A DNA stretch of 64,000 nucleotides from an uncultured Methanomassiliicoccales archaeon (GTDB lineage: Archaea > Thermoplasmatota > Thermoplasmata > Methanomassiliicoccales > Methanomethylophilaceae): positions 124,001 through 188,000 of the forward strand of contig CASEZY010000001.1 of assembly GCA_949292635.1 (NCBI GenBank), in the 5' to 3' direction. The position numbers and the translations under genes are program-made. Below are positions 6,616 to 38,875 of this stretch, in pieces (within the stretch, counting starts at the first letter, position 1; each line of letters opens with the position of its first letter). The notes beneath the pieces are model-generated. The model was not told the origin of the DNA. It made no database searches and saw nothing but the letters and a program-made list of their open reading frames with translations.

Positions 6616-7971
6616 TCACCTGCAGAATGTTTGCCTGCGGTACAATGTGGTACCGTCGCGGGCGGTGGTGTTGAACAGACAGAACGGTATCAGTTTGCCG
6701 TCCAGCGTCACCACGTGGATGCAGCAGCGCTCCCAGCGCTCCACCTCCCCGGTCCAGACGTCCTGGAACGCCATGGCGGAGACCGTGAGATAGTGGGTCT
6801 TCGCCCTGTTGGCGAACGCCCTCCAGGAGTTGTCGTCGGAATTGGAGGGTCCGTCCATGGAGTCCTCGATGAACTTCCACAGGCTGGAGACCTCGGAGCG
6901 GGTCTTGTCTGCCACATCATCCGTCTTCTTCGGCGGTCCGAGGGCCATGGTGGTCAACGGGAACAGGGATCCGTCCGGCAGCACCACCGACAGGGACTTC
7001 AGGTCGCAGTGGACGTTGGAACAGGAGGTGGGCATAAAGTTGTCCGCCTTCAGCATACCCTTGGTCTGCTCCTCGATGGCCTTGGCCAGATCCGGCAGGA
7101 GCACACGGTTCTCGTCCTGGGGCTCTATGGGATATCTGCCGAAGTATGAGATCGGCTGGAAGTGTACGCCCTTCACCGTGGGGACCTTGGTGGCAGCATA
7201 GCGGATGATGTCGCCCACGTGATGCAGGTTGATGTCCGGCGAGACCGTGACCACCAGCGTTATTCCGATGCCTACCTCGGCGCAGTTGGCGATGGCCTTC
7301 TCCTTCATCTCGAAGAGGGGTCTTCCCCTGGTCTTCATGTAGATCTCGTCGTCCGTGCCGTCGAACTGCATGTAGAAGTCATCAACACCCGCCTCCTTCA
7401 GCTTGCGGACGTACTTGATGTCGTTGGCGAGACGCAGTGCGTTGGTGTTTACCTCGATGTGTTCGATGCCCATGTCCTTTGCCATCTTCACGATCTCGGG
7501 CAGATCGTCCCTGATGGTGGGCTCTCCGCCGGAGAGCTGAACGCACCTGGGACTCTTCACATAGTCCACCACGGTCTTGAACATCCCGCGGATGGTCTCC
7601 ATGTCCGGATGATAGTCGTAGCCGCATCCGTTGGCGGTGGCGAAGCAGATCGGACAGTTGAGGTTGCAGCGGTTGGTGACCTCCACCACGTTCAGACACG
7701 TGTGCTGCAGATGACGGTCGCAGAGACCGCAGTCATGGGGACAGTCCTTCGCCCTCTCCACGACGAACTTCCCCGGCGTCTTGGGAACGGCGGCGAACTC
7801 GTAGAGGTAGCGATAATTGTCGGCGCCGGACCATATCTTTACCTTCCAGGTCCCGTGCTCCGGACATGTCTTGACGATATAGACGTCCCCGCCCTCCACC
7901 ACCTTCTCGGCGTGGATGGTCTTCAGGCACTCGGGGCAGAGCGCATCGGTCTCACCGATCTTCTCGGACAT
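6616..7971 (-). CDS. tes: Radical SAM enzyme resembling tetraether lipid synthase (Tes, COG1964)
   Basis: This probable radical SAM enzyme would join two archaeal lipid chains through sp3 carbons to make tetraether (GDGT) membranes. The architecture fits Tes: N-terminal cysteines (C12, C15, C36), a cysteine set CPHDCGLCDRHLQHTC (C77, C81, C84, C92) for an auxiliary iron-sulfur cluster, the radical SAM motif CNLNCPIC (C102, C106, C109), the SGGEPT loop, and a C-terminal CCIHVVTLDGKLIPFCLFN segment for another cluster. At 451 residues it is slightly short for the family. I use ATG 7971; the GTG at 7977 is an alternative. A TATA box (about 7997-8004) lies 26-33 bases upstream. Other COG1964 proteins exist, so the lipid role is inferred. 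Confidence 0.75.
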   Translation of the reverse strand: MSEKIGETDALCPECLKTIHAEKVVEGGDVYIVKTCPEHGTWKVKIWSGADNYRYLYEFAAVPKTPGKFVVERAKDCPHDCGLCDRHLQHTCLNVVEVTNRCNLNCPICFATANGCGYDYHPDMETIRGMFKTVVDYVKSPRCVQLSGGEPTIRDDLPEIVKMAKDMGIEHIEVNTNALRLANDIKYVRKLKEAGVDDFYMQFDGTDDEIYMKTRGRPLFEMKEKAIANCAEVGIGITLVVTVSPDINLHHVGDIIRYAATKVPTVKGVHFQPISYFGRYPIEPQDENRVLLPDLAKAIEEQTKGMLKADNFMPTSCSNVHCDLKSLSVVLPDGSLFPLTTMALGPPKKTDDVADKTRSEVSSLWKFIEDSMDGPSNSDDNSWRAFANRAKTHYLTVSAMAFQDVWTGEVERWERCCIHVVTLDGKLIPFCLFNTTARDGTTLYRRQTFCR

Positions 7972-8016
7972 CGGCACGGTGAATCACGCTAGCCAGATAT
8001 AACGGATTGGTAGAAT

Positions 8017-8507: not shown

Positions 8508-9629
8508 TCACCATGTTCCGTAGGTACCGAAGTCCCTGGCGGCCCTTGTCAGTGCGAGCAGGTTGCCGGGCAGAGAGTACGGAGGCGTCTCACAGCAGGT
8601 ACCCAGGATGAATCCCTTCTTGGCGTCGCGTCCGGCCAGGAGGACCTCCTTGGCACGCTCGTACACCTTCTTGGGGTTGGGGTTAATCATCAGCTTGGTG
8701 TCCACACCGGGCATGATGGTGGTGACATCCTGGAAGTTCTCCTTCAGCTTCTCAGCGGGGAACTCGTGCTGACCCTCGTATCCAATCTGGAACACGTTGA
8801 AGGGGGACCAGATCAGGTTGTTCTTGAACACCTTCCAGTCGGTCTCGTGGTTACCGCACAGGTGGTAGAAGATCTGGGGTCCGGCGCCCTTTCTGAAGCA
8901 CTGGTCCACGTAGTGGCGCATCTTCTTGGCGGAGAACTCCTCGACCTGCTCGTCGCTGAAGATATCGTTGTTGGCCAGAACGGATCCAACGATCAGCATG
9001 GCGGAGCCGTACTTGTCGGACAGGCAGTCCGCACCGTTGATGGAGGTCTCGACGTAGGTGTCGACCAGCTTGTGGGCGACCTCGGGCTCGGTGAAGGTCC
9101 ACATGATGAAGTTCTCAACACCGACCAGCTCAGCACCGGCACCGCACAGGTCGAATCCGTAGGAGATGGGGACCAGGGTGTGGGGCAGGTTCTTCTGGAC
9201 GTAGTCGTACAGGTTGAAGTACAGAGGGACGGTGGATCCCTTCAGCAGCTCTTCCTTTCCGATGGGGTTGAGCTTCAGCACTTCCTCGGGGTCGTCGATG
9301 ATAGGTCCGGTGGAGACCGGGGGCAGGGTGTCCTTGTACTCCAGGGTCACACCGAGCTCTCTAACCCAGGGGAGGGAGAAGAACCAGTGGGTAACGGGCA
9401 GGAGGTCGAACAGCTCTGCGACGTATCCGACGCAGTGGATTCCGAGCTCGGGCTTCTCATAGAAGTCCCTGATCGTGAAACCGCAGTGCACGGCCGCGTT
9501 CGACAGCATAATGGGGTCGACGTCGATACGGTCGTGGTAGTTGTCCACGAAGGGGCTCGCGAACCTCTTGGCGGCATTGGGGTGCCACTCCTTGAGGTCA
9601 TTCGGGGGGAACAATTCTTCGTAACCCAT
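8508..9629 (-). CDS. Uroporphyrinogen decarboxylase-superfamily methyltransferase (MtaA/MtbA-like)
   Basis: This 373-residue TIM-barrel protein belongs to the UROD/MtaA/MtbA superfamily, whose methanogen members move methyl groups from a corrinoid protein to a zinc-bound thiol such as coenzyme M. The probable zinc ligands are present: His and Cys in FYHLCGNHE, and a later Cys in ILGTCCETPPYSLPGN. It differs enough from textbook MtaA/MtbA that I do not assign a substrate. It heads a two-gene unit with the 146-residue partner. A clear TATA box (GTTATATACC, about 9660-9669) and a 220-base AT-rich upstream region with repeated operator-like sites suggest strong, controlled expression. No substrate-specific methyltransferase or corrinoid protein gene lies beside it. 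Confidence 0.85.
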   Translation of the reverse strand: MGYEELFPPNDLKEWHPNAAKRFASPFVDNYHDRIDVDPIMLSNAAVHCGFTIRDFYEKPELGIHCVGYVAELFDLLPVTHWFFSLPWVRELGVTLEYKDTLPPVSTGPIIDDPEEVLKLNPIGKEELLKGSTVPLYFNLYDYVQKNLPHTLVPISYGFDLCGAGAELVGVENFIMWTFTEPEVAHKLVDTYVETSINGADCLSDKYGSAMLIVGSVLANNDIFSDEQVEEFSAKKMRHYVDQCFRKGAGPQIFYHLCGNHETDWKVFKNNLIWSPFNVFQIGYEGQHEFPAEKLKENFQDVTTIMPGVDTKLMINPNPKKVYERAKEVLLAGRDAKKGFILGTCCETPPYSLPGNLLALTRAARDFGTYGTW

Positions 9630-12843: not shown

Positions 12844-13749
12844 ATGAAGAACTGGGAATTCGGCAGGATCAAGGGAAACGGCATCGTCATCGACGAGAGG
12901 ATGTCCGACATGATGGGCATGGTCGAGGGCGGATGCGTGTACAGCACCCTCTTCGAGTACGGGGACGACGGACCGAAGAAGTATGAGCTCATCCTCTCCA
13001 TGTATCCCCAGGAGAACTACCGCACACTCACCAACATCACCATGTACCTCAGTGACGAGCCCGGCGCCAGCGCTCAGGCCGCCAGGTTCCTGGGGGACAG
13101 AGGGATCAACATACTCAACTCGATCTCACTGGACGGGATCTCGGACACCATCATCATCTGGAAGGTGCTGGCGGACCTTAGCTTCGCCGGCGAGGTGGAG
13201 ATCCTCAAGGAGAAGTTCGCCGAGATGAAGGAGAACGGCGACCCCGCGGTATCCATGATCGACCACATCGAGGCCAGGTCCGCTGACATCGGCAGGGTGT
13301 TCCGCACCGAGGCCAACATCGGCAAGGAAGAGCTGCGCAGGGCGGCACCCGTCACACTGGTGGACGGTATGTACGACTTCTCCATCGAGTACGGCGACAT
13401 CCTGAAGGACATGGACGGCAAGAGCGTGCTCACCGTGGCCGACATCGGCTCGTGGATCATCTCCGTCACATTCTTCAAGGACCGCACCAGCCTGAGGAAG
13501 GCGGTGCTGGAGATCCCCGACTGCCCGGGATCCATCGCACAGGTGCTCACCTGGATAGCCGACCATAACATCAACCTCATATCCGTGTTCAGCAAGGTGA
13601 AGATCTGCTACCAGACCATGAGCCTGGAGATCGTGGCGGACTTCGCCGGTTCATCGCTTTCCCCGGAGGCCTTCCCCGCCGAGTTGGAGAAGGCCGCCGA
13701 GGGCATGAACGGGATCTTCTCCCTGCTGCAGTTCGAGGAGCTGGAGTGA
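12844..13749 (+). CDS. Tandem ACT-domain protein preceding acetyl-CoA synthase
   Basis: The 301-residue protein has two ACT-like regulatory domains. The first, about residues 45-125, includes TNITMYLSDEPGASAQAARFLGDRGINI. The second, about 205-290, includes TSLRKAVLEIPDCPGSIAQVLTWI. Both show the pattern of a PG turn followed by a helix and then an NI strand, which binds small ligands. No DNA-binding or catalytic domain is visible. The stop lies four bases before acsB, so it is the first gene of that operon and could sense an amino acid or other metabolite to tune acetyl-CoA synthesis. ATG 12844 follows AAGGTGG. Confidence 0.75.
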   Translation: MKNWEFGRIKGNGIVIDERMSDMMGMVEGGCVYSTLFEYGDDGPKKYELILSMYPQENYRTLTNITMYLSDEPGASAQAARFLGDRGINILNSISLDGISDTIIIWKVLADLSFAGEVEILKEKFAEMKENGDPAVSMIDHIEARSADIGRVFRTEANIGKEELRRAAPVTLVDGMYDFSIEYGDILKDMDGKSVLTVADIGSWIISVTFFKDRTSLRKAVLEIPDCPGSIAQVLTWIADHNINLISVFSKVKICYQTMSLEIVADFAGSSLSPEAFPAELEKAAEGMNGIFSLLQFEELE

Positions 13750-13753
13750 TAGC

Positions 13754-15931
13754 ATGGACGCTTCGAAGATAGCCGAACTGTATCCCTCGGTACCGAAGGA
13801 GGACGTCGACTACCTCTGCACCTCCGTCACCTCGGCGGACGTGGCCGGACTGCTGGGATTCGCCAAGGAGGGTTCGGACCGCGCCGTGGACCTGGCCAAG
13901 AGGCTCTGCGCAGCCCTGGACGGGAGCACCGTGCTCACATTCCCCGACACCGGTTACGGACTGCCCGCCATATGCGCATGGAAGGGCATCGACACCATGA
14001 CCGCAGCTGATGCCGTGGGGTTCCTGTCATCCCTGCCGGAGACCAAGTGCGCCGAACTGGCGGACGGGTTCGTGGCGGGGGAGAACGCCATGTACGCCGC
14101 GGAAATCATCGAGTCCGTCGCATACCTGGGACACACCCTGGAGGACCGTCCCGGATTCGTGCCGGACCGTGTACTCAGAGCGCTGGGCCTTCCCTTCGTG
14201 GACGAGACCATCCCCGGAGCCGTTGCGTTCCTGGGCGGCCTGGACGATCCGGAAGCGGTGAAGAAGATGTCCAGGGACTTCCAGGGCAAGGGAATGGTCG
14301 GCCTCGCGTCGGGAGAGTATCCGGCGCAGTTCGTGGCCGCCGGCGCCAAGATGGACCTGGAGCGCAGGTTCTACGACGTGGGCTGCTTCACCGGAACCGT
14401 CCACGCCATCAACTTCGCCGTCAGGGCGGCACTCACGTTCGGTAACATCTCACCAGGAGACAGGGAGGGATTGGACGCCTACCTCACCAAGAGGCCCAAG
14501 GTCATCGTGATACAGAATGGACCCATCAGCAGGATCGACGCCGCGCTTGCCTTCGCGGCGCTCATGCACCACGCGTCCATCGTGACGGACTGCGACCTCC
14601 CGGAGGTCCCCGGTGCGCTGAAGGTCTGCAAGGACCCCCTGGACATGATCCAGGTGGGCATCGAGGAGAGGGGCATCATCGTCAAGCTGCAGCCGATCGA
14701 ACTGCCGGTGGCTTACGCACCGTCCTTCGAGGGCGAGGTGGTCAGGAAGCCCGACACCTACGTGGAGGCCGGCGGGAGCAGGAGCCCCTCCTTCGAGGTG
14801 CTGCTCTCCAAGAGCGAGAGCGAGGTGGAGGACGGCAAGGTCACACTCATCGGCCCGGAGATCGATGAGATGAAGGAAGGCTCGCTTACGCCTCTCGGAC
14901 TGATCGTGGAGGTCTACGGACCCAACATGCAGGAGGACCTGGAATCCGTCCTGGAGAGGAGGTTCCACAGCTCCATCAATTTCGCAGAGGGAGTCTGGCA
15001 CAACGGTCAGAGGGACAACAACTGGATCAGGATCAGCAAAGTATCCAAGGAGGCCGGCTTCAAGATGGCCGACCTGGGGAAGATCCTGGTGCATAAGATC
15101 AAGGAGGAGTTCGGCAAGGTGGTCACCCGCGTGCAGGCCACCGTCATCACCGACCCCGAGGAGCTGGAGCGCCGCCGCCCGGAGGCAGAGAAGGCCTACG
15201 CCATCAGGGACGAGAGGATGAAGGGACTGGTGGACGACAAGGTGGACCTGTTCTATACCTGCGCCATGTGCCAGTCATTCGCGCCCGGACACATATGCAT
15301 CATCGCCCCCGAGAGGATCGGTCTCTGCGGCGCCATCAACTGGCTGGATTCCAAGGCCGGATTCGAGCTGGACCCCAGAGGGCCCAACCAGCCCGTGGAC
15401 AAGGGATACGTGATCGACGGCCCCAAGGGCGAGTGGAGCGGGGTCAACGAGGCCATCCGCAAGGAGACCATGGGAAGGCTGGACAGGATGTGCATGTACA
15501 GCCTGATGGACGCTCCGATGACATCATGCGGATGCTTCGAGGTCATCGTGGCCATGACCGTGGACATGCAGGCGGTGATCCTTGTGGACAGGGACTTCAC
15601 CGGCATGACCCCGGTGGGCATGAAGTTCTCGTCGCTGGCGGGTTCCATCGGCGGCGGACGCCAGACCCCGGGATTCATGGGCATCGGCAAGAGATACATC
15701 ACCAGCAAGAGGTTCATCGAGGCCGAGGGCGGCATAGCCAGGATCGCCTGGATGCCCAAACATCTCAAGGAGATCGTGGGCCCCGAATTCAAGAAGAGAT
15801 GCGAGGAGATCGGCATGCCCGACCTCCTCGACAAGATAGCGGACGAGACGGTGACGGAGGACGCGGAGGGCCTGATGGCATACATGGCCGAGGTGGGCCA
15901 CCCCGCACTCACCATGGACCCGCTGCTTTGA
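13754..15931 (+). CDS. acsB: Acetyl-CoA synthase, bacterial full-length type (AcsB)
   Basis: It makes or cleaves acetyl-CoA from CO, a methyl group on the corrinoid iron-sulfur protein, and CoA. The A-cluster ligands are intact: C503, C506, C515 and C525 (YTCAMCQSFAPGHIC, then GLCGA) with the C-x2-C-x8-C-x9-C spacing, and C592-G-C594 for the nickel pair. At 725 residues it includes the N-terminal domain (about 1-310, with DTGYGLPAI) that docks CO dehydrogenase in bacterial enzymes. Archaeal CdhC usually lacks this domain and is about 470 residues, so this copy is bacterial in type. It is followed by both corrinoid-protein subunits; no CO dehydrogenase gene lies in the window. Confidence 0.95.
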   Translation: MDASKIAELYPSVPKEDVDYLCTSVTSADVAGLLGFAKEGSDRAVDLAKRLCAALDGSTVLTFPDTGYGLPAICAWKGIDTMTAADAVGFLSSLPETKCAELADGFVAGENAMYAAEIIESVAYLGHTLEDRPGFVPDRVLRALGLPFVDETIPGAVAFLGGLDDPEAVKKMSRDFQGKGMVGLASGEYPAQFVAAGAKMDLERRFYDVGCFTGTVHAINFAVRAALTFGNISPGDREGLDAYLTKRPKVIVIQNGPISRIDAALAFAALMHHASIVTDCDLPEVPGALKVCKDPLDMIQVGIEERGIIVKLQPIELPVAYAPSFEGEVVRKPDTYVEAGGSRSPSFEVLLSKSESEVEDGKVTLIGPEIDEMKEGSLTPLGLIVEVYGPNMQEDLESVLERRFHSSINFAEGVWHNGQRDNNWIRISKVSKEAGFKMADLGKILVHKIKEEFGKVVTRVQATVITDPEELERRRPEAEKAYAIRDERMKGLVDDKVDLFYTCAMCQSFAPGHICIIAPERIGLCGAINWLDSKAGFELDPRGPNQPVDKGYVIDGPKGEWSGVNEAIRKETMGRLDRMCMYSLMDAPMTSCGCFEVIVAMTVDMQAVILVDRDFTGMTPVGMKFSSLAGSIGGGRQTPGFMGIGKRYITSKRFIEAEGGIARIAWMPKHLKEIVGPEFKKRCEEIGMPDLLDKIADETVTEDAEGLMAYMAEVGHPALTMDPLL

Positions 15932-15940: not shown

Positions 15941-16870
15941 ATGACTGACATACCGCAGGTCGCGGACAAGTACGGCGGGGCCATCGACGAGGTGGTCCTG
16001 GGCAAGGGAGACTACATAGCGGGTGGATTCAAGGGCATGCCCTTCCTCTCCTTCGAGAACCCGGTGAAGAGGAGACCCCTCATAGCGGGAGAGGTCTACG
16101 ACACCCTGGAGGGGTATCCGGAGCTGGCGGCGTCCATGTTCGACGGCCGTCAGAAGGACCCCGTGGAGTGGGCGCTGATGTGGAAGCAGCTGGGCGCGGA
16201 CATGGTCTGCGTGAGGCTGGCAAGCGTGGACCCCGCCAAGGGCGGCACCTCCCCTGAGGACGCGGCCGCACTGGTGAAGAGGATCTCCGACGCCACAGGT
16301 CTGCCCATAATGGTCAGCGGCTGCGGCGTGATGGACGTGGACATCCCGGTGTTCACCGCCGTCTCCGAGGCTGTGAAGGACAGCAGGCTCATCCTCTCCA
16401 AGGCGGACGAGGACGACTACAAGAGGTTGGCCTCGGTGGCCATCTCCGGCAACCACATCATCGTGGGATTCTCCAACCTGGACGTGAACCTGTCCAAGCA
16501 GATCAACATCCTACTCACCGATTTCGGTGTGGACAGGCGCAACATGCTCATGGACCCCCTGATGGCGGCCCTGGGCATGGGATTGGATTACTCCTACTCC
16601 GTGCAGGAGAGGATCAGGATCGCGGCGCTGATGGGCGACCCCATGCTGCAGATCCCCATGCTCTGCGACTGCACCGGAGCCTGGGATGTCAGCGATGCGG
16701 TCAGCGACGAGGACCCTGCCTTGGGCGACCCCAAGTTCAGGGCCACCTGGTGGGAGGCCATCACCGCCATGGCCGCGGTGATCTCCGGAGCGGACATCAT
16801 CGTAATGAGGGGCCCCGGAGCGGCGGACATGCTGATGGGATACATCGACGAGATGAGAGGTGATGAGTGA
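15941..16870 (+). CDS. acsD: Corrinoid iron-sulfur protein small subunit (AcsD/CdhD)
   Basis: This is the small subunit of the corrinoid iron-sulfur protein (CFeSP) that carries the methyl group to acetyl-CoA synthase. The TIM-barrel sequence has WALMWKQLGADMVCVRLASVDP, the MVSGCGVMDVDIPVF strand, and the MDPLMAALGMGLDYSYSVQERIR segment that I associate with this family, with NILLTDFGVDR before it. Its 309 residues are typical. It begins nine bases after acsB and overlaps acsC as TGATG, so the three are translationally coupled. Confidence 0.92.
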   Translation: MTDIPQVADKYGGAIDEVVLGKGDYIAGGFKGMPFLSFENPVKRRPLIAGEVYDTLEGYPELAASMFDGRQKDPVEWALMWKQLGADMVCVRLASVDPAKGGTSPEDAAALVKRISDATGLPIMVSGCGVMDVDIPVFTAVSEAVKDSRLILSKADEDDYKRLASVAISGNHIIVGFSNLDVNLSKQINILLTDFGVDRRNMLMDPLMAALGMGLDYSYSVQERIRIAALMGDPMLQIPMLCDCTGAWDVSDAVSDEDPALGDPKFRATWWEAITAMAAVISGADIIVMRGPGAADMLMGYIDEMRGDE

Positions 16871-18183
16871 TGCCGACGGCGATCGAGTTCTTCAAGCTCC
16901 TGCCAAAGACCAACTGCAAGGACTGCGGACAGCCCACCTGCCTGGCGTTCGCGATGCTGCTGTCGAACCAGAAGGCCACCATCGACCAGTGCCCCCATGT
17001 GGCCGCCGATGCCAAGGAGACCCTGGAGGAGGCGTCCGCGCCCCCGGTGAGGACCATCAAGGTCGGTGACAAGGACATGGGCGGGGAGACCGTCCTGTAC
17101 CGCCACGAGCGCAGGTTCATCAACCCCACCGCTTACGCATTGACCGCATCTGACACATTGGATGACGCCGCCCTGAAGGAGAGGTGCGATTACGTCGCAT
17201 CCCTCAGCTACGACAGGGTGGGAATGATCTTCGACGCCGACATGGTCTGCCTGAGGAACGACTCCGGCGACGCGGCGATATTCGCGGACCGTGCGGTCAA
17301 GCTGGCACAGTGCTGGAGCAAGGGCGTCGTGTTGGAGACGAAGGACCCCTCCGCCGCAAAGACTGCGGCAACGGCGATCAAGGACAGGAAGCCCCTGATC
17401 TACGGTGCGAACGCCGACAACCTGGACGCCATGATCGCTGTGGCGAAGGAGAACGGCTGTGCGCTGGGTCTTGTCTGCAAGGACGAGAACGAGGCCGTCG
17501 CCCTCACCGAGAGGTGCGCAGCGGCCGGCTTCAAGGACCTCATACTGGACCTGGGCGCCAACAACCTGAAGGAGACCCTGGAGAGACAGACCATCGCAAG
17601 AAGGGCTGCCATCAAGCACAAGTTCAAGCCCCTGGGATACCCGCTGATGAACCGTGTGGGTTCGGGCGAGTATGCGGTGGCCACCGCTGTCATCTCGACC
17701 ATGAAGTACGGTAGCCTGGTGATCTTCGACGACCTGAAGAGCTACGAGGCCCTACCCCTGTTCACCCTGAGGCAGAACATCTACACGGACCCCCAGGTGC
17801 CGATCCAGGTGAAGCAGGACCTGTACCCCATAGGCAACCCGGACGAGCACTCGCCCATCATGTTCACCACCAACTTCTCCCTCACGTACTTCACCGTGCG
17901 TGCTGACATCGAGAAGGCCAAGATTCCAGTGTGGCTGCAGATCGTGAACACCGAGGGACTGTCCGTTCTAACGGCTTACTCCGCAGGCAAGTTCGAGCCC
18001 GAGAGGGTCGCCGAGGCCTTCGAGGAGTCCGGTGTGCTGTCCAAGTCCGACGGGGCCGTGATCATCCCCGGTCTGGTGACCAGGATGTCCGGCAAGCTCC
18101 AGGAGCTCATCGGACGCAAGGTGATCGTTGGTACCAACGACTCCAGGGACATCCCCAAGCATCTGAGGTCCATCACCCAGTGA
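16870..18183 (+). CDS. acsC: Corrinoid iron-sulfur protein large subunit (AcsC/CdhE)
   Basis: This large CFeSP subunit binds the [4Fe-4S] cluster that reactivates the corrinoid, and together with AcsD holds the B12 cofactor. The N-terminal four-cysteine motif is present: CKDCGQPTCLAF followed by a cysteine in QCPHV (C-x2-C-x4-C-x16-C). A TIM barrel follows, and the C-terminal 110 residues form the corrinoid-binding Rossmann-like domain. The ATG at 16870 overlaps the acsD stop; the GTG at 16867 is less likely. Its 3' end overlaps that of convergent cooC by 11 bases. Confidence 0.93.
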   Translation: MPTAIEFFKLLPKTNCKDCGQPTCLAFAMLLSNQKATIDQCPHVAADAKETLEEASAPPVRTIKVGDKDMGGETVLYRHERRFINPTAYALTASDTLDDAALKERCDYVASLSYDRVGMIFDADMVCLRNDSGDAAIFADRAVKLAQCWSKGVVLETKDPSAAKTAATAIKDRKPLIYGANADNLDAMIAVAKENGCALGLVCKDENEAVALTERCAAAGFKDLILDLGANNLKETLERQTIARRAAIKHKFKPLGYPLMNRVGSGEYAVATAVISTMKYGSLVIFDDLKSYEALPLFTLRQNIYTDPQVPIQVKQDLYPIGNPDEHSPIMFTTNFSLTYFTVRADIEKAKIPVWLQIVNTEGLSVLTAYSAGKFEPERVAEAFEESGVLSKSDGAVIIPGLVTRMSGKLQELIGRKVIVGTNDSRDIPKHLRSITQ

Positions 18184-18922
18184 TGGAATCAGTCAGCTTG
18201 GTGACGGCCACGGCGAAGGGACACTCCGGAGGTATCCTTACCTCCTCCCCGGCCATGGCCGACTCGGTGACCGCGTCGTCGTGGGGCACCGCGAACACCT
18301 CTTTCAGACCGAGGCGCTCCGCCTCGGCCCTGAGGGGCTCCGGCACACCCTCATAATTCGCCGGCACATTGTTGATCACGAGGATCCTGCGGTCCACCTG
18401 CATACCGATCTCGTCCGCCAAGTCAGAAAGACGGGCGGCGGTCCTGACGCCGGTGATGGTGGGATCTGAAACGAAAACCAGCACATCCGCTCTTGGGAGG
18501 ACACCGCGGGATATGTGCTCCATGCCCGCCTCGTTGTCGACGACGGTGACCTTGTAGCGGGGGATCATCTCCAGGAAGCAGTTCTTCAGGATGTCGTTGA
18601 CGTAGCAGTAGCATCCCTTGCCCTCCGGCCTGCCCATGACCAGCAGGTCGATGTTGTCCCCCTCGGAGAGGGTCTGCATGACCTTGGTGGTTATGTACTC
18701 CTGCTTGCTGACGCTGGCCGGGACCACCTCAGGATCGTCGACAAGCTCGTTCCTCACCGAGCCGATGGTGCCGTATACGTCGATGCCAAGCTTCTCGCCC
18801 AGATTGGAGTTGGGGTCGGCGTCCACCGCCAGCACCAGCCCCTTCTTGGCTATGCGCTTGATCACTTGGGACGATATGGTGCTCTTGCCCACACCCCCCT
18901 TCCCTGCGAAGGCTATGATCAT
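18173..18922 (-). CDS. cooC: CooC-type nickel maturation ATPase for CO dehydrogenase/ACS
   Basis: This ParA/MinD-like ATPase inserts nickel into CO dehydrogenase or acetyl-CoA synthase. The deviant Walker A GKGGVGKST is at the N-terminus, and GKGCYCYVND carries the CxC pair that binds metal in CooC dimers. AVDADPNSNLGEKLGI and VVDNEAGMEHISRG are the usual switch regions. The length of 249 residues is normal. AGGAGG lies upstream of ATG 18922, and the start overlaps the stop of the upstream methionine-synthase gene as ATGA. Its presence implies a nickel CO dehydrogenase or ACS to mature; AcsB is next door. Confidence 0.92.
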   Translation of the reverse strand: MIIAFAGKGGVGKSTISSQVIKRIAKKGLVLAVDADPNSNLGEKLGIDVYGTIGSVRNELVDDPEVVPASVSKQEYITTKVMQTLSEGDNIDLLVMGRPEGKGCYCYVNDILKNCFLEMIPRYKVTVVDNEAGMEHISRGVLPRADVLVFVSDPTITGVRTAARLSDLADEIGMQVDRRILVINNVPANYEGVPEPLRAEAERLGLKEVFAVPHDDAVTESAMAGEEVRIPPECPFAVAVTKLTDSITG

Positions 18923-19923
18923 AGGTGTCTCCTCCTGAGCTCCTCGGCGGTCTCCTTCAGAAGTTTTAGTACCGTACCGACCAGCTTGGGGTCTGTGCCT
19001 CCGAGACCGCACTGCGGCGTTACCAGCGACCTGCGTATCAGCAGGTCCATGCTCACGCCCTTGGCCTCCAGGTCCTTCATGTGACCGTCCACCCTGTCCG
19101 CCAGGGACTCCGGGGTCTCGTCCGCCGCGAGCTCGTTGTTGGGCACGATGCCCCATGCAAGCGAACCTCCCCGCTCCAGGAAGTCGGAGACCTCCTTGGG
19201 GTAGAGGGTCAGCGCCCTGCCGTAGGCGTAGGCGTCGAAATTGAGTATGTCAATCCTGGTGCGCAGCACCATGGGCCAATCCGTGTTGCCGCAGCAATGG
19301 ATGGCGGTGAAGGCATCGACTCCTTCGATGGACTCGTCGATGTACCTGACGGCGTCGTCCGCGGACACTGATGCAAAGGGAGTTCCCAGAAGGGAGAGGG
19401 AGGGCTCGTCGAAGAACATGATCACGTTGGGATTCAGTTCCTTCAGCTTCCCGGCCTGCCACCTGGCGCTCATGTTCACGGTTTTGCGCACGATCTCGCA
19501 ATAGGATTCGTCGTAGATCACCGAGCGTCCGGTCAGGTCCTGCACCTGGAGACCCTCGCTTATGGGGCCGGTGACCTGTCCTTTCACCGCCGTGGAGCCG
19601 GAGACGTCCCTGCCCATCAGCTCGTACAGGCCGGCGTTGTGCTCCCGGCTCGCTTCGAAGTATGAGAGGTCCTCTCCGAGAATGGCCATGTAGGCCTCGG
19701 TCGGGTCATAATCACCCAGGTCGACGGCCATCTTGTCGCCTTCCACCCTCAGTCCGGGGAGCCTCTCCCCGGTCTGCACATACATACTCTCGGTGTATCC
19801 GCGTCCGGAGAGCTGGGGCCAGGAGGGGCATGACAGCCCTGCGCCCATCACCGCATCCACCGCCTCTGCGGGGTCGGAGTACGGCAGCGAGCCTATGAGA
19901 GTGGTAGCGAAGTTCCAGTCCAT
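18919..19923 (-). CDS. mesB: Core-MetE methionine synthase, probably MesB type
   Basis: This is a short methionine synthase of the MetE catalytic-domain family, without the N-terminal half. The zinc ligands fit: His and Cys in TAIHCCGNTDW and a Cys in TPQCGLGG. MesB-type core-MetE proteins occur in anaerobes with the Wood-Ljungdahl corrinoid protein, which is the suspected methyl donor. The position between acsV and cooC and opposite acsDC fits that well. It would methylate homocysteine using methyl-CFeSP. I use ATG 19923; GTG 19938 is possible. A TATA-like TTATTAATA near 19948-19956 overlaps the end of acsV and may give a second promoter. Confidence 0.8.
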   Translation of the reverse strand: MDWNFATTLIGSLPYSDPAEAVDAVMGAGLSCPSWPQLSGRGYTESMYVQTGERLPGLRVEGDKMAVDLGDYDPTEAYMAILGEDLSYFEASREHNAGLYELMGRDVSGSTAVKGQVTGPISEGLQVQDLTGRSVIYDESYCEIVRKTVNMSARWQAGKLKELNPNVIMFFDEPSLSLLGTPFASVSADDAVRYIDESIEGVDAFTAIHCCGNTDWPMVLRTRIDILNFDAYAYGRALTLYPKEVSDFLERGGSLAWGIVPNNELAADETPESLADRVDGHMKDLEAKGVSMDLLIRRSLVTPQCGLGGTDPKLVGTVLKLLKETAEELRRRHL

Positions 19924-19948
19924 CGCCAGCGCTAACACCGTTGACCTA

Positions 19949-21445
19949 TTAATAACGGACCGATGGGAACTGGGATGCGTCGGTATTGGGCAGGAACTGA
20001 GCCGCGGTGTACTCGTCGTAGAACACAGGGTCGGATCCGAGGTCGATGTATGTCATCCTGGGGAACACCTCCTCGATGCGGTCCCTGAAGGTCTGCGACA
20101 GCAGGGCGTGCTTGGCACCGCCAAGTGATGAGTTTCCGAGATACACGTACTTGGACTCGTCCACGTCCGGGAACATGCCCATGATGATGGCGGAGCGCAT
20201 GTCGATATAGTTGCCGAACCCGCCGGCTATGTACACCTTATCCAGGTCGGAGAACTGCAGACCCATGCTCCTGACCAGGGTCCTGGCCGCCGAATATATG
20301 GCGGCCTTGGTCATGATCACGTCCTTGATCTCCGCATCGGAGATGCCGATGTCACCGCAGACGATGAAGCGGCCGTCCTTCACGTTGGGTCCGGGGCGCA
20401 GGTTCCCGCGACGGTCAACCGCACCGCTGGAGAACAGCGCGGCGATGAGATCCACGATTCCGGAGCCGCAGATGCCCTCCGGCTCCCCTCCGCCAATCAC
20501 GGTATACCTAACGGTATCCTTTACTATGCGGATGCTGTCTATGGCACCTTTGCGGGCGATCATCCCGGATTTGAGATTCCCGCCCTCGAAGGCCGGACCC
20601 GCTGAGGAGGAGCACACGACCATCAGGTCCCGGTTGCCCAGGGCCACCTCGCCGTTGGTACCCACATCTATGAGCAGACACATGCCCTCGGCACGGTCCA
20701 TCCCCGCGTACACGATATCGGCGGTGATGTCCCCGCCCACGTACGCCGCAACGCAGGGCATGGTAAGCACACGGGCGTCGTCCGCCACGTCGAGACCGCT
20801 TTGCTTACCGGTGACCTCCTTCCGCTCCACCACCGGCATGTACGGCGGTTCGCGAATCAGGGTGGGATCTATGCCCAGGAAGAGATGCTCCATGGTGGTG
20901 TTTCCAGCGATGTAAACTGATTCTATCACGCCGTCGAAGGGGGCGTTGGAAACCAACGCGTTGATGGAGCGGAGCACCATGCCGCGCATGTCGTCCGTGC
21001 CTCCCTCCGACGCATACTGGATGCGTGACAGAACATCGTCCCCCACCGCCCTCTGGCCGTTGACGTCCGTGGCGGAATACAGCTCGGTGCCGCTCCCGGA
21101 ATCCAGGATGCTCAGTGCGATGGTTGTGGTGCCGATGTCCACCGCCAACGCCAGGCCGTCCGATACGGGTGTGAGGTCGTCCAACTCCAGCGGCCTGCGG
21201 TCGGATGCGGCCACCACGTCCCTGTCCCGGACAGGCACCGTGACCGTGATATCCCCGCGCACCTCGTGCTTGCAGGCCAGAACCTCTGTGCCGTTCACGG
21301 AGACCTTGCATCTGCCGCATCTGCCGGCTCCGCCGCATGGGAGAGGTATGCGAACGCCCGCCGCCCTGGCGACATCCGAGAGGATCTGACCATCCCGGGC
21401 ATCAGCCTCCTTACCGGAGGGCAGGAAGACCACCTTGTGGACCAT
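19949..21445 (-). CDS. acsV: Reductive activator of corrinoid iron-sulfur protein (AcsV/RACo-like)
   Basis: It reduces inactive Co(II) corrinoid back to Co(I) at the cost of ATP. Residues 1-90 are a plant-type [2Fe-2S] ferredoxin domain (CGGAGRCGRC, then a later Cys in VLACKHE). The rest is the DUF4445 ASKHA ATPase with DIGTTTIALSI, LLIDVGTNGEVAL, AGPAFEGGN, GSGIVDLI and YIAGGFGNYID. This is the architecture of activators found in acetogen acs clusters. Methanogen RamA instead carries [4Fe-4S] ferredoxin domains, so the activator too is bacterial in style. It heads the acsV-mesB-cooC unit. Start ATG 21445 with GGAAGGG upstream. Confidence 0.92.
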   Translation of the reverse strand: MVHKVVFLPSGKEADARDGQILSDVARAAGVRIPLPCGGAGRCGRCKVSVNGTEVLACKHEVRGDITVTVPVRDRDVVAASDRRPLELDDLTPVSDGLALAVDIGTTTIALSILDSGSGTELYSATDVNGQRAVGDDVLSRIQYASEGGTDDMRGMVLRSINALVSNAPFDGVIESVYIAGNTTMEHLFLGIDPTLIREPPYMPVVERKEVTGKQSGLDVADDARVLTMPCVAAYVGGDITADIVYAGMDRAEGMCLLIDVGTNGEVALGNRDLMVVCSSSAGPAFEGGNLKSGMIARKGAIDSIRIVKDTVRYTVIGGGEPEGICGSGIVDLIAALFSSGAVDRRGNLRPGPNVKDGRFIVCGDIGISDAEIKDVIMTKAAIYSAARTLVRSMGLQFSDLDKVYIAGGFGNYIDMRSAIIMGMFPDVDESKYVYLGNSSLGGAKHALLSQTFRDRIEEVFPRMTYIDLGSDPVFYDEYTAAQFLPNTDASQFPSVRY

Positions 21446-21528
21446 GTCCCTTCCACATCGGCGGGATTTAACTACCTTTCCCCAGTTTTCGCGAAACTAC
21501 AAAATACGCGCTCATGTGTATCCGGTGC

Positions 21529-22221
21529 GTGGACATCTCTGGATTCACGAAGATAAACACCGTGAAATGGGAGGGGATACCCTCCTGCGAAGTGTATCTC
21601 TCCGGATGCAACTTCAGATGCCCTTTCTGTACCAACGGCGAGTTCATTAACGCCCAAGGTCACATGACCGAGGATGACGTGATCTCGCACATCAAGGAAT
21701 GCGACTACGCCGACGGTGTGATCATCACCGGCGGGGAGCCTTTGGTTCATGCGGACCTATATCTTCTGCTCAGAAGGATCAAGAAGGAGACGGGCAAACT
21801 GGTCCGCCTGGAGACCAACGGCAGCTACCCCGACCGCCTGGACGACGTCATCGGCGCGGGGCTGGTGGACTTCGTGTCCATGAGCATCAAGGCCCCACTG
21901 AAGCAGGACGAGTACGCCATGAACGCCTACGCCCTCGTTGACATCGAGGAGATCGAGCGGAGCATCAGGATCGTGATGGACTCCGGCGTCGACTACGAGT
22001 TCCGCACCACGGTGGTGCCCATCCACATAACCGAGGACGACATCCGCAGCATCTGCTCATCCATCAAGGGGGCGAAATGCTACAGGCTCTGCCAGTTCCG
22101 CCCGGGATCCTGCCTGGACAGCACCCTCGACAAGATCAACCCGTACAAGGAGAAGGTCCTCCGTGACATGGAGGGCATCGCCAAGCAGTACGTTAAGCGG
22201 GTGAAGGTGTCCGGATTCTAA
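21529..22221 (+). CDS. nrdG: NrdG-like radical SAM activase (anaerobic ribonucleotide reductase)
   Basis: It probably generates the glycyl radical on class III ribonucleotide reductase. The radical SAM motif CNFRCPFCTN follows the usual SGFTKINTV N-terminus, and ITGGEPL is the SAM-contacting loop. Its 230 residues match archaeal NrdG-like activases. The start is uncertain. A GTG at 21529 gives the family-like N-terminus and fits a TATA-like TACAAAATA near 21498-21506; an ATG at 21514 would add five residues, including two cysteines. No nrdD is in the window, so other glycyl-radical partners are possible. Its stop overlaps that of the convergent aldehyde dehydrogenase gene. Confidence 0.8.
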   Translation: MDISGFTKINTVKWEGIPSCEVYLSGCNFRCPFCTNGEFINAQGHMTEDDVISHIKECDYADGVIITGGEPLVHADLYLLLRRIKKETGKLVRLETNGSYPDRLDDVIGAGLVDFVSMSIKAPLKQDEYAMNAYALVDIEEIERSIRIVMDSGVDYEFRTTVVPIHITEDDIRSICSSIKGAKCYRLCQFRPGSCLDSTLDKINPYKEKVLRDMEGIAKQYVKRVKVSGF

Positions 22222-32837: not shown

Positions 32838-32880
32838 TAAAAAATGGAAGTGGTTTAAGGGGTTTGTGTGGGGTGTCACA
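32838..32880 (-). terminator. Probable terminator after the fpo operon
   Basis: Downstream of the fpoN stop the reverse strand has a short GTGTG/CACAC inverted repeat, then the shared 22-base element, then a T run (TTTTTT, 32838-32843). T-rich tracts are the main archaeal termination signal, so the operon probably ends here. Confidence 0.45.
32845..32866. repeat. 22-base conserved element, copy 2
   Basis: It is identical to 8017-8038 except for one base. It lies 10 bases after the fpoN stop and 35 bases upstream of the TATA box of the GGPP synthase gene. As at copy 1, it sits between the end of one reverse-strand gene and the promoter of a lipid gene. Confidence 0.6.
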
Positions 32881-34393
32881 CCAGCGCGAACAGGGCATCC
32901 GCAGCGGTGCTGCAGAGGTCCAGCAGGATGTTGGGGTAGACACCCAGGACGATGACTCCGATCACACATAGTGCGATGGCCACCAGGAAGGGCTTGCCGA
33001 TGGTGAGCTTCTCCTCGGTAGCGGGCTTCTCCACGTACATCGCCTTGACCACGCGAGCGTAGTAGTACAGCGATATGGCGGAGTTCAGCACTGCCACGAC
33101 GACCAGCCACAGCCAGGTCAGGTCTACTTCCGCTCCGGGAGCTGCGATGGCTCCGGAGAACAGGATGAACTTGGAGGTGAATCCTGCCAGCGGAGGGATA
33201 CCTGCCAGCGAGAACAGGAACAGCATCATGGCGGCTGCCGCGAAGGGAGCCCTCTTTGCCAGTCCGTTGTAGTCGCTGATCTTCTCGCCCAGTCCCGCGG
33301 TGATCAGTGCGGCGACCACCACGAAGGCCCCTCCCTTCATGACCACGTGGGTGAACATGTGGAAGAGACCGCCGACCACTACGTAGTTGGTCATGACGGC
33401 CAGGACGATCAGGATGTAACCCGCCTGAGCGATACTGGAGTAGGCCAGCATCCTCTTGATGTTGGTCTGGGAAATCGCAACGACGTTGCCCACGGTCATG
33501 GTGACGGCGGCCAGGATGGCGAAGACCATCTGGAAGCTCTCGGGCAGCACGCCAGTCCTCATGGCCACGAACATGACCAGGAAGATCTTCAGGATGACAG
33601 CGAATCCCATCTTCTTGGAGCCGGTGGCAAGGAAGCCGGACACAGGGGTCGAGGCTCCCTCGTAGACATCGGGGGACCAGGAGTGGAAGGGCACCGCGGA
33701 GATCTTGAAGCCGTAACCGGCGATCATACCGATGCAACCGATGACGAACGGCCAGTTGCCGGACATAGCGGACACGGCTGCGATGATGCCATCGGGGCCG
33801 TACAGGTCCAGGCTTCCGGTGACTCCGTAGATCATGGACATGCCGTACAGGGTCAGAGCGGAGGACAGCGCACCGATGATCAGATACTTGACCGCTGCCT
33901 CGGAGGCGCGGGCGTCGTTCTTCTTCAGGGCCACCAGGGCGTAGGAGAAGATACTGACGACCTCCACACCGACGAAGATGGCGATCAGGTTGGTGGCGCT
34001 GGCCACGAACATCATGGCCGCCACGGCACCGGCGATCAGAGCGTAGTACTCACCCTTGTGCTTGGTGGTCTCGACGTGTCCCTGGGAGATGAACACCGTC
34101 AGTGCACCGACGGCCAGGAACAGCAGCATCATCAGGCTGCTGAACGCATCGAACTGGAAGAGTCCGAACGCGGTGCCGTAGGTTACGGTGTGCATCATGA
34201 TGCAGGTGATGACGGCGGAAACCCCCATCAGCACGAAGGTCAGGATGGCCGAGGCCGTCCCCTTCTTCGTGATGAAGTAGAGGAGCGGCGACAGCACGGC
34301 TGCCACCAGCAGTATGACCTCAGGGAGCACATAGATCCCCTGTCCGAGGTAACCGGAAAGGGCGTCGATTATTGTGTTGAATATGTCTGCCAT
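32876..34393 (-). CDS. fpoN: Complex I-type membrane subunit FpoN (antiporter-like)
   Basis: This proton-pumping membrane subunit of the Fpo/complex I family is homologous to NuoN. It has about 14 hydrophobic helices over 505 residues, with the conserved KISAVPFHSWSPDVYEGASTPVSGF segment that carries the channel lysines, and a GFTSKFILF element in a late helix. GAGGTG precedes ATG 34393. It is the last gene of the operon: no fpoO follows. A T-rich terminator region comes next. Confidence 0.94.
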   Translation of the reverse strand: MADIFNTIIDALSGYLGQGIYVLPEVILLVAAVLSPLLYFITKKGTASAILTFVLMGVSAVITCIMMHTVTYGTAFGLFQFDAFSSLMMLLFLAVGALTVFISQGHVETTKHKGEYYALIAGAVAAMMFVASATNLIAIFVGVEVVSIFSYALVALKKNDARASEAAVKYLIIGALSSALTLYGMSMIYGVTGSLDLYGPDGIIAAVSAMSGNWPFVIGCIGMIAGYGFKISAVPFHSWSPDVYEGASTPVSGFLATGSKKMGFAVILKIFLVMFVAMRTGVLPESFQMVFAILAAVTMTVGNVVAISQTNIKRMLAYSSIAQAGYILIVLAVMTNYVVVGGLFHMFTHVVMKGGAFVVVAALITAGLGEKISDYNGLAKRAPFAAAAMMLFLFSLAGIPPLAGFTSKFILFSGAIAAPGAEVDLTWLWLVVVAVLNSAISLYYYARVVKAMYVEKPATEEKLTIGKPFLVAIALCVIGVIVLGVYPNILLDLCSTAADALFALV

Positions 34394-34403
34394 TTCTTTC
34401 ACC

Positions 34404-35888
34404 TCAGATTAGGGCAATGCCTCCCGCGAAGGTCATTATGTAGTCCGTTGCAAGGGTGGGCACGATACCGAACAGTGCGATGAGCACCGCAAGGACCGCC
34501 AGCACCACGCACTCGATGTTGCCGATGTCGTGGGCGTGCTCAAGGTCGATCTTGTCGGTCAGTCTGCCGAACAGGGTCTTCTGCATGGCCCAGATGTAGT
34601 ATCCGGCGGTCAGCAGCATGTAGAGCAGACCGAGCAGGATGAGCGGGGTCAGGTTGACACTGACCAGGTACTCCCACAGTCCGTACAGCAGGCCGAACTC
34701 GGCGATGAATCCCATCAGTCCGGGCAGTCCGAGGGACGCCATGAAGGCAATCATCATGAACAGCGCGAACTTGGGTGCCTTTCCGGCCATTCCGCCCAGC
34801 AGGCGCATGTCCCTGGTGCCGAAGTTGTGTCCGGCGAGACCGCAGACCATGAACAGGGCGGCGGAGATGAGACCATGAGCGAACATCTGGAAGATCGCGA
34901 ACTCGATTCCGATCTCGGACATGCATCCCATGCCAACCAGCACCATTCCCATGTGGCTGATGGATGAGTAGGCCACCATCTTCTTCAGGTCGTTCTGGGC
35001 GATGCAAGCGTACACGCCGTAGACCATGGCGAAGATACCGAGGCCGATCATCACAGGCTGCCAGTAGGGGAATGCGGCGCTGAAGATGTCAGCGTTCAGG
35101 CACACCCTGATGATACCGTAGGAACCCATCTTCAGCATGACACCGGCCAGCAGGACGGAACCTGCGGTAGGTGCCTCCACGTGGGCATCCGGCAGCCAGG
35201 TGTGGAACGGCGGCACGGGCATCTTGACCGCGAAGCCGAAGAACAGCAGGCCGAACAGGAAGATCTGCATCATCAGTGGCAGATCGGCTCCGGCAGCGAC
35301 GGCGGCGAAGGAGAAGTCCCCTCCGGTGGTGCCGAAGACCAGGCCGAAGATACCGATCAGCATGACCAGCGAGGCCACGTGGGTGTAGATGAAGAACTTG
35401 ATCGCAGAGTAGTGCCTGCGGGGTCCTCCGTACCACGAGATCAGGAAGAACATGGGGATCAGGGTCACTTCCCACATGATGTAGAACAGGAAGTAGTCCT
35501 GGGCCATGTACACTCCCATCAGTCCGACCTCCATCGCCAGCAGCAGGGCGTGGAAGTAGTTGGGCCTGTCCTCCTCGTTCCAGCTGAAGATGACCACGAG
35601 GAACATCAGCAGCGCGGTGAGGAAGACCATCAGGATGCTCAGACCGTCGATGGCGAAGATGATGCTCATCTTGATGCCGGCGGACTCGATCCAAGCGTAG
35701 CTCTCAGTGAGGTTTGCGAGGTCGGAGGACGGCAGGATCATCACGTACAGCGACAGCACGAGGGCTATCGCGGTGAAGACCAACGCCACGACCTTGGCGT
35801 ACTTTGTCCTGGTGCCGCCCATGAAGAGGGTCAGTATGGCTCCGATCAGCGGGATCAGCACCAGCAGGCTAAGGATAGGAATATCCAT
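34404..35888 (-). CDS. fpoM: Complex I-type membrane subunit FpoM (antiporter-like)
   Basis: This NuoM homologue and proton channel has 494 residues and about 14 helices. The family signature VKMPVPPFHTWLPDAHVEAPTAGSVLLAGVMLKMGSY is present in pieces around residues 225-260, with the key Lys and Glu positions intact (for example WEVTLIPMFFLI for the helix-5 Glu). It starts one base after the stop of fpoL and is followed by fpoN after ten bases. Confidence 0.95.
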   Translation of the reverse strand: MDIPILSLLVLIPLIGAILTLFMGGTRTKYAKVVALVFTAIALVLSLYVMILPSSDLANLTESYAWIESAGIKMSIIFAIDGLSILMVFLTALLMFLVVIFSWNEEDRPNYFHALLLAMEVGLMGVYMAQDYFLFYIMWEVTLIPMFFLISWYGGPRRHYSAIKFFIYTHVASLVMLIGIFGLVFGTTGGDFSFAAVAAGADLPLMMQIFLFGLLFFGFAVKMPVPPFHTWLPDAHVEAPTAGSVLLAGVMLKMGSYGIIRVCLNADIFSAAFPYWQPVMIGLGIFAMVYGVYACIAQNDLKKMVAYSSISHMGMVLVGMGCMSEIGIEFAIFQMFAHGLISAALFMVCGLAGHNFGTRDMRLLGGMAGKAPKFALFMMIAFMASLGLPGLMGFIAEFGLLYGLWEYLVSVNLTPLILLGLLYMLLTAGYYIWAMQKTLFGRLTDKIDLEHAHDIGNIECVVLAVLAVLIALFGIVPTLATDYIMTFAGGIALI

Positions 35889-37952: not shown

Positions 37953-37953
37953 T

Positions 37954-38540: not shown

Positions 38541-38541
38541 A

Positions 38542-38874: not shown

Positions 38875-38875
38875 A

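What the first reader, a model, noticed from the sequence alone, without database searches (positions are those of the whole stretch)
13754..15931. Full-length bacterial-type acetyl-CoA synthase in a methanogen-like genome
AcsB is 725 residues, with the N-terminal CO-dehydrogenase-docking domain that archaeal CdhC lacks, and its A-cluster cysteines lie within three residues of the positions known for the Moorella enzyme. The neighbouring activator (AcsV with a [2Fe-2S] domain) is also bacterial in style. The cluster was probably gained from an anaerobic bacterium, replacing or avoiding the archaeal ACDS complex.
Basis: partly seen in the sequence, partly recalled or inferred. Interest (0 to 1): 0.7.

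Follow-up and report, generated by a model that had tools for sequence, protein, structure and literature searches.

The report
Lone acetyl-CoA synthase in a methanogen
A methane-producing archaeon carries an acetyl-CoA synthase whose usual partner, carbon monoxide dehydrogenase, is missing from the genome; the enzyme probably runs backwards and supplies methyl groups for making methionine, and related genomes show the partner being lost in stages.

Summary
In detail: 13754-15931 (+) encodes a full-length, three-domain, bacterial-type AcsB (725 aa) with every A-cluster ligand, in a genome with mcrA, next to AcsD, AcsC, a CooC-like ATPase, a core methionine synthase (MesB) and AcsV. The reading "gained from a bacterium in place of ACDS" is only half right. 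The genome (99.9% complete) shows no CODH of any kind; its one Prismane-family hit is hybrid-cluster protein. Trees of AcsB, AcsC, AcsD, AcsV and MesB each put Thermoplasmatota on one side of one branch from the sampled bacteria, so this is old, vertically inherited equipment, not a recent gain. Relatives form a series: CODH and AcsB fused in one ~1370-aa ORF; fused but with CODH ligands lost; a ~265-aa CODH remnant in front of AcsB; AcsB alone, as here. AcsB and MesB co-occur (64 of 71 AcsB genomes). Best explanation: AcsB cleaves acetyl-CoA to CO, CoA and a methyl group on AcsCD, which MesB passes to homocysteine, as proposed for Dehalococcoides mccartyi. In Chloroflexota CODH is missing from the operon in parallel, with the same fast divergence of the former docking domain. 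A new variant of a known kind; the chemistry is inferred, not shown.

The parts
12844..13749 (+). ACT-domain protein directly upstream of acsB (possible earlier TTG start 12772)
   Evidence: Pfam ACT 38 bits; homologue directly upstream of AcsB in most fetched loci of families f1-f5, none found at the bacterial loci
13754..15931 (+). AcsB, full-length acetyl-CoA synthase with intact A-cluster ligands C503, C506, C515, C525, C592-G593-C594
15941..16870 (+). AcsD, small subunit of the corrinoid iron-sulfur protein
   Evidence: NCBIfam PRK04452.1-2 282 bits, cut-off 280; Pfam CdhD
16867..18183 (+). AcsC, large subunit of the corrinoid iron-sulfur protein with N-terminal Fe-S motif
   Evidence: NCBIfam PRK04165 510 bits, cut-off 306; Pfam CdhD + FeS
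18173..18925 (-). CooC/AcsF-like P-loop ATPase, probably nickel insertion for the A-cluster (inferred)
   Evidence: CbiA/MinD/ArsA-type matches; conserved place in the block
18919..19938 (-). MesB-type core methionine synthase; zinc ligands H214, C216, D235, C310 in this 339-aa ORF
   Evidence: weak match to archaeal methionine synthase PRK00957; zinc pattern HC-D-C (numbered there without the first six codons); co-occurs with AcsB; family from Price 2021
19949..21445 (-). AcsV/RACo-type reductive activator of the corrinoid protein, with [2Fe-2S] domain
   Evidence: Fer2, Raco_middle, RACo_C_ter
21514..22221 (+). Radical SAM activase of the NrdG2 family, divergently adjacent; a relation to the module is not shown
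   Evidence: TIGR02495 159 bits, cut-off 131; neighbour in f1 loci

Best explanation
The cluster is an acetyl-CoA-to-methionine methyl relay. AcsB, working without CODH, cleaves acetyl-CoA at its A-cluster. The methyl group goes to the corrinoid iron-sulfur protein AcsCD, CoA is released, and CO escapes (inferred). MesB, which carries a zinc site and lacks a folate domain, moves the methyl group from AcsCD to homocysteine to give methionine (inferred). CooC would load nickel, AcsV would rescue over-oxidised corrinoid, and the ACT protein may sense an amino acid (all inferred). The module descends from a complete CODH/ACS that the Thermoplasmatota lineage had as one fused polypeptide. In Methanomassiliicoccales the CODH part decayed and was lost more than once, while ACS, its corrinoid protein and MesB stayed under selection.
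For: No CODH in a 99.9% complete genome: CooS profile TIGR01702 gives 26 bits against a cut-off of 478, and the one Prismane hit is hybrid-cluster protein. Own genus: AcsB 6 of 6, CooS over cut-off 0 of 6, MesB 6 of 6. AcsB x MesB over 147 genomes of the order: both 64, AcsB only 7, MesB only 8, neither 68, Fisher p=2.4e-24, not corrected for kinship. The block ACT-AcsB-AcsD-AcsC with convergent CooC-MesB-AcsV is conserved. G000 has the homocysteine family HcyBio and a single Pterin_bind hit of the strong class; a second, weaker hit (AcsE/MtrH-like by inference) found in many relatives is missing in all 6 genomes of its genus. All seven genes are under purifying selection against G117 (dN/dS 0.12-0.15). 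CODH erosion: fused ORFs with 17-18 of 18 conserved CODH Cys/His, degenerate fused forms keeping few beyond the last four, ~265-aa remnants keeping almost none. Remnants match the CODH profile (hhalign 96%, E 1.7e-9), not the AcsB N-terminal domain (1.3%) or reversed CODH (0.2-0.5%). Precedent: D. mccartyi AcsB cleaves acetyl-CoA, CO leaves, no CODH, no acsE (Deobald 2020, passages; Price 2021, passages). Faster N-terminal domain divergence without a CODH partner: ratio 1.8-1.9 (f1, f5) and 2.26 (Chloroflexota with CODH missing from the operon) against 0.9-1.5 with CODH.
Against: No assay or labelling exists for these archaea. 38 of 71 AcsB genomes do have a CooS-type CODH somewhere, fused or free, so the CODH-free state is not general in the order. 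8 of 72 MesB genomes lack AcsB in the search, including G028 (96% complete, no CdhD-family hit) and G136 (95%). HcyBio also occurs in 42 of 75 genomes without MesB. Five g14 genomes keep AcsB without corrinoid protein or MesB. The divergence test has an exception (g30, 1.19), its CODH-plus groups reach 1.5, and I chose the groups. MetF/Mer was not tested in G000, so another methyl source for AcsCD is not excluded.
Confidence: 0.66

Rival explanations
1. AcsB runs forwards: methyl groups from methanol or methylamines reach AcsCD through a methyltransferase, and AcsB combines them with CO taken from surroundings or from another reaction to make acetyl-CoA for biosynthesis.
For: The genome is a methanogen of an order known from the literature to use methyl compounds; a monomeric ACS without CODH exists as a solved structure (1ru3, 7nyp titles); an MtaA-like URO-D protein lies nearby at 8508-9629.
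Against: No CODH to make CO; the constant partner is a methionine synthase; the former CODH/CO-delivery domain has diverged fast.
Confidence: 0.16
2. AcsB is only a side activity, and the true methyl source of MesB is AcsCD charged by another methyltransferase (methyl-pterin or methyl-corrinoid).
For: MesB occurs without AcsB in 8 of 72 genomes; some Methanomassiliicoccales carry MTHFR and folD (PMC11264602, passages); Methanolapillus keeps CdhDE without CdhC (PMC11362671, passages).
Against: AcsB is retained with intact A-cluster under purifying selection, which this reading does not explain; no second pterin-binding protein in the genus.
Confidence: 0.12
3. One reading: the cluster was acquired by this lineage from an anaerobic bacterium as a substitute for ACDS and serves carbon fixation.
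For: Bacterial-type AcsB and AcsV; no ACDS.
Against: Thermoplasmatota form one side of one branch in five gene trees; the order and other Thermoplasmatota share it; no CODH, so no CO2 fixation by this route.
Confidence: 0.04
4. The cluster is a decaying relic of CODH/ACS without present function.
For: CODH has been lost stepwise.
Against: All genes intact, dN/dS 0.12-0.15; gene order kept over the order.
Confidence: 0.02

Closest known systems
Incomplete Wood-Ljungdahl pathway of Dehalococcoides mccartyi (AcsBCD + core-MetE/MesB)
   Same: AcsB, AcsC, AcsD and a MesB-type enzyme with HC-D-C zinc ligands; no CODH; acetyl-CoA proposed as methyl source, CO as waste (Deobald 2020; Price 2021). Chloroflexota loci examined here show CODH missing between AcsD and AcsB and the same fast N-terminal domain.
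   Different: Archaeal methanogen; separate AcsB clade; CODH lost from a fused CODH-AcsB polypeptide, leaving remnants in relatives; an ACT-domain protein heads the operon; MesB sits in the cluster.
Moorella/Carboxydothermus/Clostridium CODH/ACS (AcsA-AcsB)
   Same: AcsB architecture and A-cluster.
   Different: No AcsA in the genome.
Archaeal ACDS complex (CdhABCDE)
   Same: AcsD and AcsC correspond to CdhD and CdhE.
   Different: No CdhA-type CODH; AcsB has the N-terminal domain and scores far better against the bacterial model.
Methanimicrococcus and Methanolapillus (gut Methanosarcinales) with partial CODH/ACS
   Same: Methanogens that lack CdhA and CdhB (and CdhC in Methanolapillus) but keep the remaining subunits (PMC11362671, passages).
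   Different: Archaeal-type subunits; these genomes keep Mtr and Mer to supply methyl groups.
Ca. Gimiplasmatales (Thermoplasmata) with acsA-E
   Same: Bacterial-named acs genes in sister lineages of the order (PMC11264602, section read).
   Different: Complete acsA-E, proposed for acetogenesis, no MCR.

Membership tests
Bacterial-type AcsB (NF040764) | Full-length match over curated cut-off | tested here: met
   818 bits, cut-off 800
Bacterial-type AcsB (NF040764) | A-cluster ligands C-C-C-C and C-G-C | tested here: met
   pattern shared by 149 of 155 aligned AcsB
Bacterial-type AcsB (NF040764) | N-terminal domain (CODH_A_N) and three-domain fold | tested here: met
   Pfam 48 bits, cut-off 32; TM 0.92 to 6ytt_D
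Bacterial CODH/ACS complex | CODH subunit AcsA/CooS in the genome | tested here: not met
Archaeal ACDS complex | CdhA-type CODH | tested here: not met
   Prismane search finds only hybrid-cluster protein in G000
Archaeal ACDS complex | Short CdhC without N-terminal domain | tested here: not met
   none seen in 243 Thermoplasmatota genomes
MesB core methionine synthase | Zinc ligands H, C, D/E, C | tested here: met
   H214, C216, D235, C310, compared with positions in Price 2021
MesB core methionine synthase | At least 173 bits to DET0516 (published threshold) | not tested
   DET0516 sequence was not at hand
MesB core methionine synthase | Genomic link to acsBCD | tested here: met
D. mccartyi-type incomplete pathway | AcsBCD present, CODH absent | tested here: met
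D. mccartyi-type incomplete pathway | No AcsE methyltransferase | tested here: inconclusive
   single strong-class Pterin_bind hit in G000; assignment of classes is inferred from scores
D. mccartyi-type incomplete pathway | No MetF | not tested
D. mccartyi-type incomplete pathway | Acetate methyl found in methionine | not testable with these tools
   needs labelling

The most novel reading that the evidence does not exclude
In a whole order of methanogens, acetyl-CoA synthase has been taken out of carbon fixation and turned into a one-way acetyl-CoA demethylating enzyme that feeds methionine and SAM synthesis and releases CO. The evolutionary steps are still visible: CODH-ACS fusion, dead fused CODH, ~265-aa ghost of CODH, then ACS alone, with relaxation of the former docking domain. 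The same happened independently in Chloroflexota. In one genus (g14) the ACS has gone further, with a C-S-C nickel motif and no corrinoid protein, pointing to a new reaction.
Probability: 0.5. Interest if true: 0.75.

Novelty: new variant of a known kind. Interest (0 to 1): 0.6.

Why it matters
It would explain where methanogens that (from the literature) lack Mtr and the methyl branch get the methyl group of methionine, and would show that acetyl-CoA cleavage by a lone ACS arose at least twice. The graded series from intact CODH-ACS fusion to ghost domain to free ACS is a natural experiment on how a channelled two-enzyme complex is taken apart, and it makes the role of the ACS N-terminal domain testable. 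It also warns against counting acsB as a marker of Wood-Ljungdahl carbon fixation or acetogenesis in metagenomes.

Tried and rejected
Recent horizontal gain by this genus: rejected by five gene trees. The first AcsB tree used a plain LG model and warned of long branches; it was repeated with a mixture model, without the g14 and L047 long rows, and for Thermoplasmatota with a bacterial outgroup.

Prismane hit in G000 as a CODH: rejected after reading the protein, which starts MFCFQCEQT...CGK as hybrid-cluster protein does (motif recalled).

N-terminal extension as a duplicate of the ACS N-terminal domain: rejected. The ~250-aa extension of L105/L207 was set aside as an Arg-rich out-of-frame stretch by eye. 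L208 (148 aa), L198 (same protein as L119), L203 (same as L127) and L209 (g25) were left out of the extension profile.

The AlphaFold model of the ghost domain from two sequences was useless (pLDDT 35), so its fold is untested. The Rfam search found only two tRNAs, no riboswitch at the cluster. A CdhC outgroup could not be obtained, so the AcsB tree is unrooted with respect to CdhC and the direction of the ancient exchange is open. Co-occurrence p-values are not corrected for kinship. The set at or above 90% completeness holds 76 genomes and does not use the contamination filter (the search tool's own set is 74). Whole-genome absence of CODH was not tested for the Chloroflexota (only the neighbourhood). 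Papers that I recalled on this subject (Adam 2018; Zinke 2021; Hu 2021) were not held, so parts of this may be in print there. My searches for a fused CODH-ACS (listings only) and for acsB, CODH or methionine in this order (and 75; listings, with passages or a section read) showed no description of the erosion series.

Full report
WHAT IS THERE. The ORF 13754-15931 (+) encodes 725 residues. It passes the curated model for the bifunctional, bacterial-type acetyl-CoA synthase (818 bits, cut-off 800) and matches the archaeal cdhC model only over 316-719 (434 bits). Pfam finds the N-terminal CODH_A_N domain at 53-125. Against the PDB the best hits are Moorella and Carboxydothermus ACS; in the shared region a truncated Moorella ACS scores 518 bits and Methanosarcina CdhC 358. 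A-cluster residues are C503, C506, C515, C525, C592-G593-C594. The AlphaFold model (33-row alignment, pLDDT 88) fits C. autoethanogenum ACS at TM 0.92.

SURROUNDINGS. Downstream on + are AcsD (15941-16870) and AcsC (16867-18183). Convergent on - are a CooC-like ATPase (18173-18925), a core methionine synthase (18919-19938) and AcsV with Fer2 and RACo domains (19949-21445). Upstream is an ACT-domain protein (12844-13749). The methionine synthase carries H-C-D-C at spacings +2, +21, +96; Price 2021 gives 214, 216, 235, 311 for D. mccartyi MesB, and in the 339-aa ORF here the residues are 214, 216, 235, 310. The genome has mcrA and belongs to the order that includes Methanomassiliicoccus: locus L098, named Methanomassiliicoccus sp. 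QR_Bin.16, gives the same hit position as G021 of the same order. L119, named Methanomethylophilaceae, has the same AcsB coordinates and length as G108 of the window's own family.

NO CODH. A Prismane-family search covers CooS, CdhA and hybrid-cluster protein. In G000 (99.9% complete) it gives one hit. The protein there begins as hybrid-cluster protein does and scores 26 bits with the CooS model against a cut-off of 478. In the window's genus, AcsB is in 6 of 6 genomes, MesB in 6 of 6, CooS over cut-off in 0 of 6. Over the order, 71 of 147 genomes have ACS_CODH_B_C; 38 of these 71 have a CooS over cut-off somewhere and 33 do not.

HISTORY. In a careful mixture-model tree, 24 Thermoplasmatota AcsB stand on one side of a 100/100 branch from 44 bacterial AcsB, 20 of them Chloroflexota. 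A quick tree with 58 and 71 rows gave the same split. AcsC (34 and 57 rows), AcsD (42 and 50), AcsV (27 and 29) and MesB (23 and 8, support 93) agree. CODH_A_N was found in 35 of 389 Thermoplasmatota genomes, including lineages outside the order, and no short CdhC was seen in 243. The module is therefore old in the phylum. The bacterial sample is the best hits to a Moorella-led query (80 loci, some archaeal) plus 121 Chloroflexota genomes, so an unsampled bacterial neighbour is possible, and without CdhC the root is open.

EROSION OF CODH. In several lineages CODH and AcsB are one ORF of 1360-1393 codons. Six of the seven intact fused forms checked keep 18 of 18 conserved CODH Cys/His columns and L054 keeps 17. 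In genus g25 the fused CODH scores 446-451 bits against ~1130-1190 and keeps little beyond the last four columns. In g30, f4 and g11 AcsB has a ~230-310-residue N-terminal extension. No Pfam family matches it in L051, but a profile of 16 such extensions matches the C-terminal part of CODH in order, with probability 96.3 and E 1.7e-9; reversed CODH gives 0.2-0.5% and the AcsB N-terminal domain 1.3%. g11 alone reaches only 65-71%, g30 alone 89-95%. Conserved Cys/His are almost all gone. The remnant is still coding: dN/dS 0.20-0.74 in eight of nine pairs (one not computable) against 0.10-0.19 in AcsB. Window, f5 and most f1 AcsB have no remnant. On a rooted tree the intact-fused state needs at least 3 changes among the rows counted.

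A SIGNATURE OF LIVING WITHOUT CODH. The ratio of N-terminal to C-terminal divergence of AcsB is 1.34 (fused, in the order), 0.92 (fused, other Thermoplasmatota), 1.50 (separate acsA), 1.30 (Bacillota), 1.31 and 1.34 (Chloroflexota with CODH). Without a CODH partner at the locus it is 1.82 (f1), 1.93 (f5) and 2.26 (Chloroflexota with CODH missing). In the first version of the test g25 gave 2.02, g11 2.78, g14 1.92, f6 unfused 2.04, and g30 was an exception at 1.19. The groups were mine, and the intervals overlap for some. Eight Chloroflexota loci read AcsV-CooC-x-AcsD-AcsB-AcsC with CODH missing, while three on the same side of the tree keep CODH next to AcsB, so loss there looks independent.

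LINK TO METHIONINE. AcsB and MesB co-occur: both 64, AcsB only 7, MesB only 8, neither 68 of 147. AcsB-only are five g14 genomes and two poor assemblies (G050, G131). MesB-only include G028 (96% complete) and G136 (95%). HcyBio, the homocysteine family, is in G000 and in 66 of 72 MesB genomes, but also in 42 of 75 without MesB. Many relatives have a second, weaker Pterin_bind protein, sometimes near AcsB; the window's genus has only the strong-class one, which fits the lack of a pterin methyltransferase for AcsCD. Deobald 2020 (passages) describes for D. mccartyi acetyl-CoA cleavage by AcsB, CO leaving the cell and, as a hypothesis, direct methyl transfer from AcsCD to core-MetE, with neither CODH nor acsE. 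Price 2021 (passages) lists Methanomassiliicoccales as having MesB only, and states that they have the Wood-Ljungdahl pathway. What is added here is that the window genome has no CODH, so the pathway there cannot fix CO2 and the acetyl-CoA-cleaving direction is the natural reading.

VERDICT. A lone, selected-for ACS (dN/dS 0.137 against G117) with its corrinoid protein, activator and a methionine synthase most likely harvests methyl groups from acetyl-CoA. Shown: genes, ligands, absence of CODH, gene order, co-occurrence, descent, CODH remnants. Inferred: direction of reaction, release of CO, transfer to MesB, roles of CooC, AcsV and the ACT protein.

Noticed in passing
L046, L157-L160 (genomes G119-G122, G124, genus g14): Divergent AcsB with C-S-C in place of the C-G-C nickel motif in all five, next to CooC and AcsV, but no AcsC/AcsD, MesB, HcyBio or CODH found; possibly a new function.
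   Followed up: partly
L042:4918-6456 (G015) and L152:3376-3768 (G157): Intein-like inserts inside AcsB: a ~512-aa one with a LAGLIDADG domain at an A-cluster cysteine, and a ~130-aa one in the C-terminal domain. In L042 the frame also breaks downstream of the insert.
   Followed up: partly
L043:5346-9464, L054:7778-11869, L153:6123-10277, L156:8669-12799 and others: CODH and AcsB fused in one ~1370-codon ORF in several Thermoplasmatota lineages, with CODH ligands intact.
   Followed up: yes
L116, L118, L120, L128, L132: Bacterial AcsB fused at its C-terminus to AcsD in one ORF of 1155-1270 codons.
   Followed up: no
L215, L216, L218-L221, L224, L230 against L217, L222, L223: Chloroflexota operons in which CODH is missing between AcsD and AcsB, beside relatives that keep it.
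   Followed up: partly
window 51722-52954 (-): RuBisCO large-chain homologue in the methanogen genome.
   Followed up: no
window 6616-7977 (-): TrsS-family radical SAM protein (534 bits, cut-off 490), also close to the tetraether synthase model.
   Followed up: no
window 32876-42248 (-): Fpo/Nuo-like complex genes (antiporter-type subunits, NADHdh, 49-kDa subunit).
   Followed up: no
L166, AcsB A-cluster: One order member has F aligned at the second A-cluster cysteine; sequence error or real change not checked.
   Followed up: no
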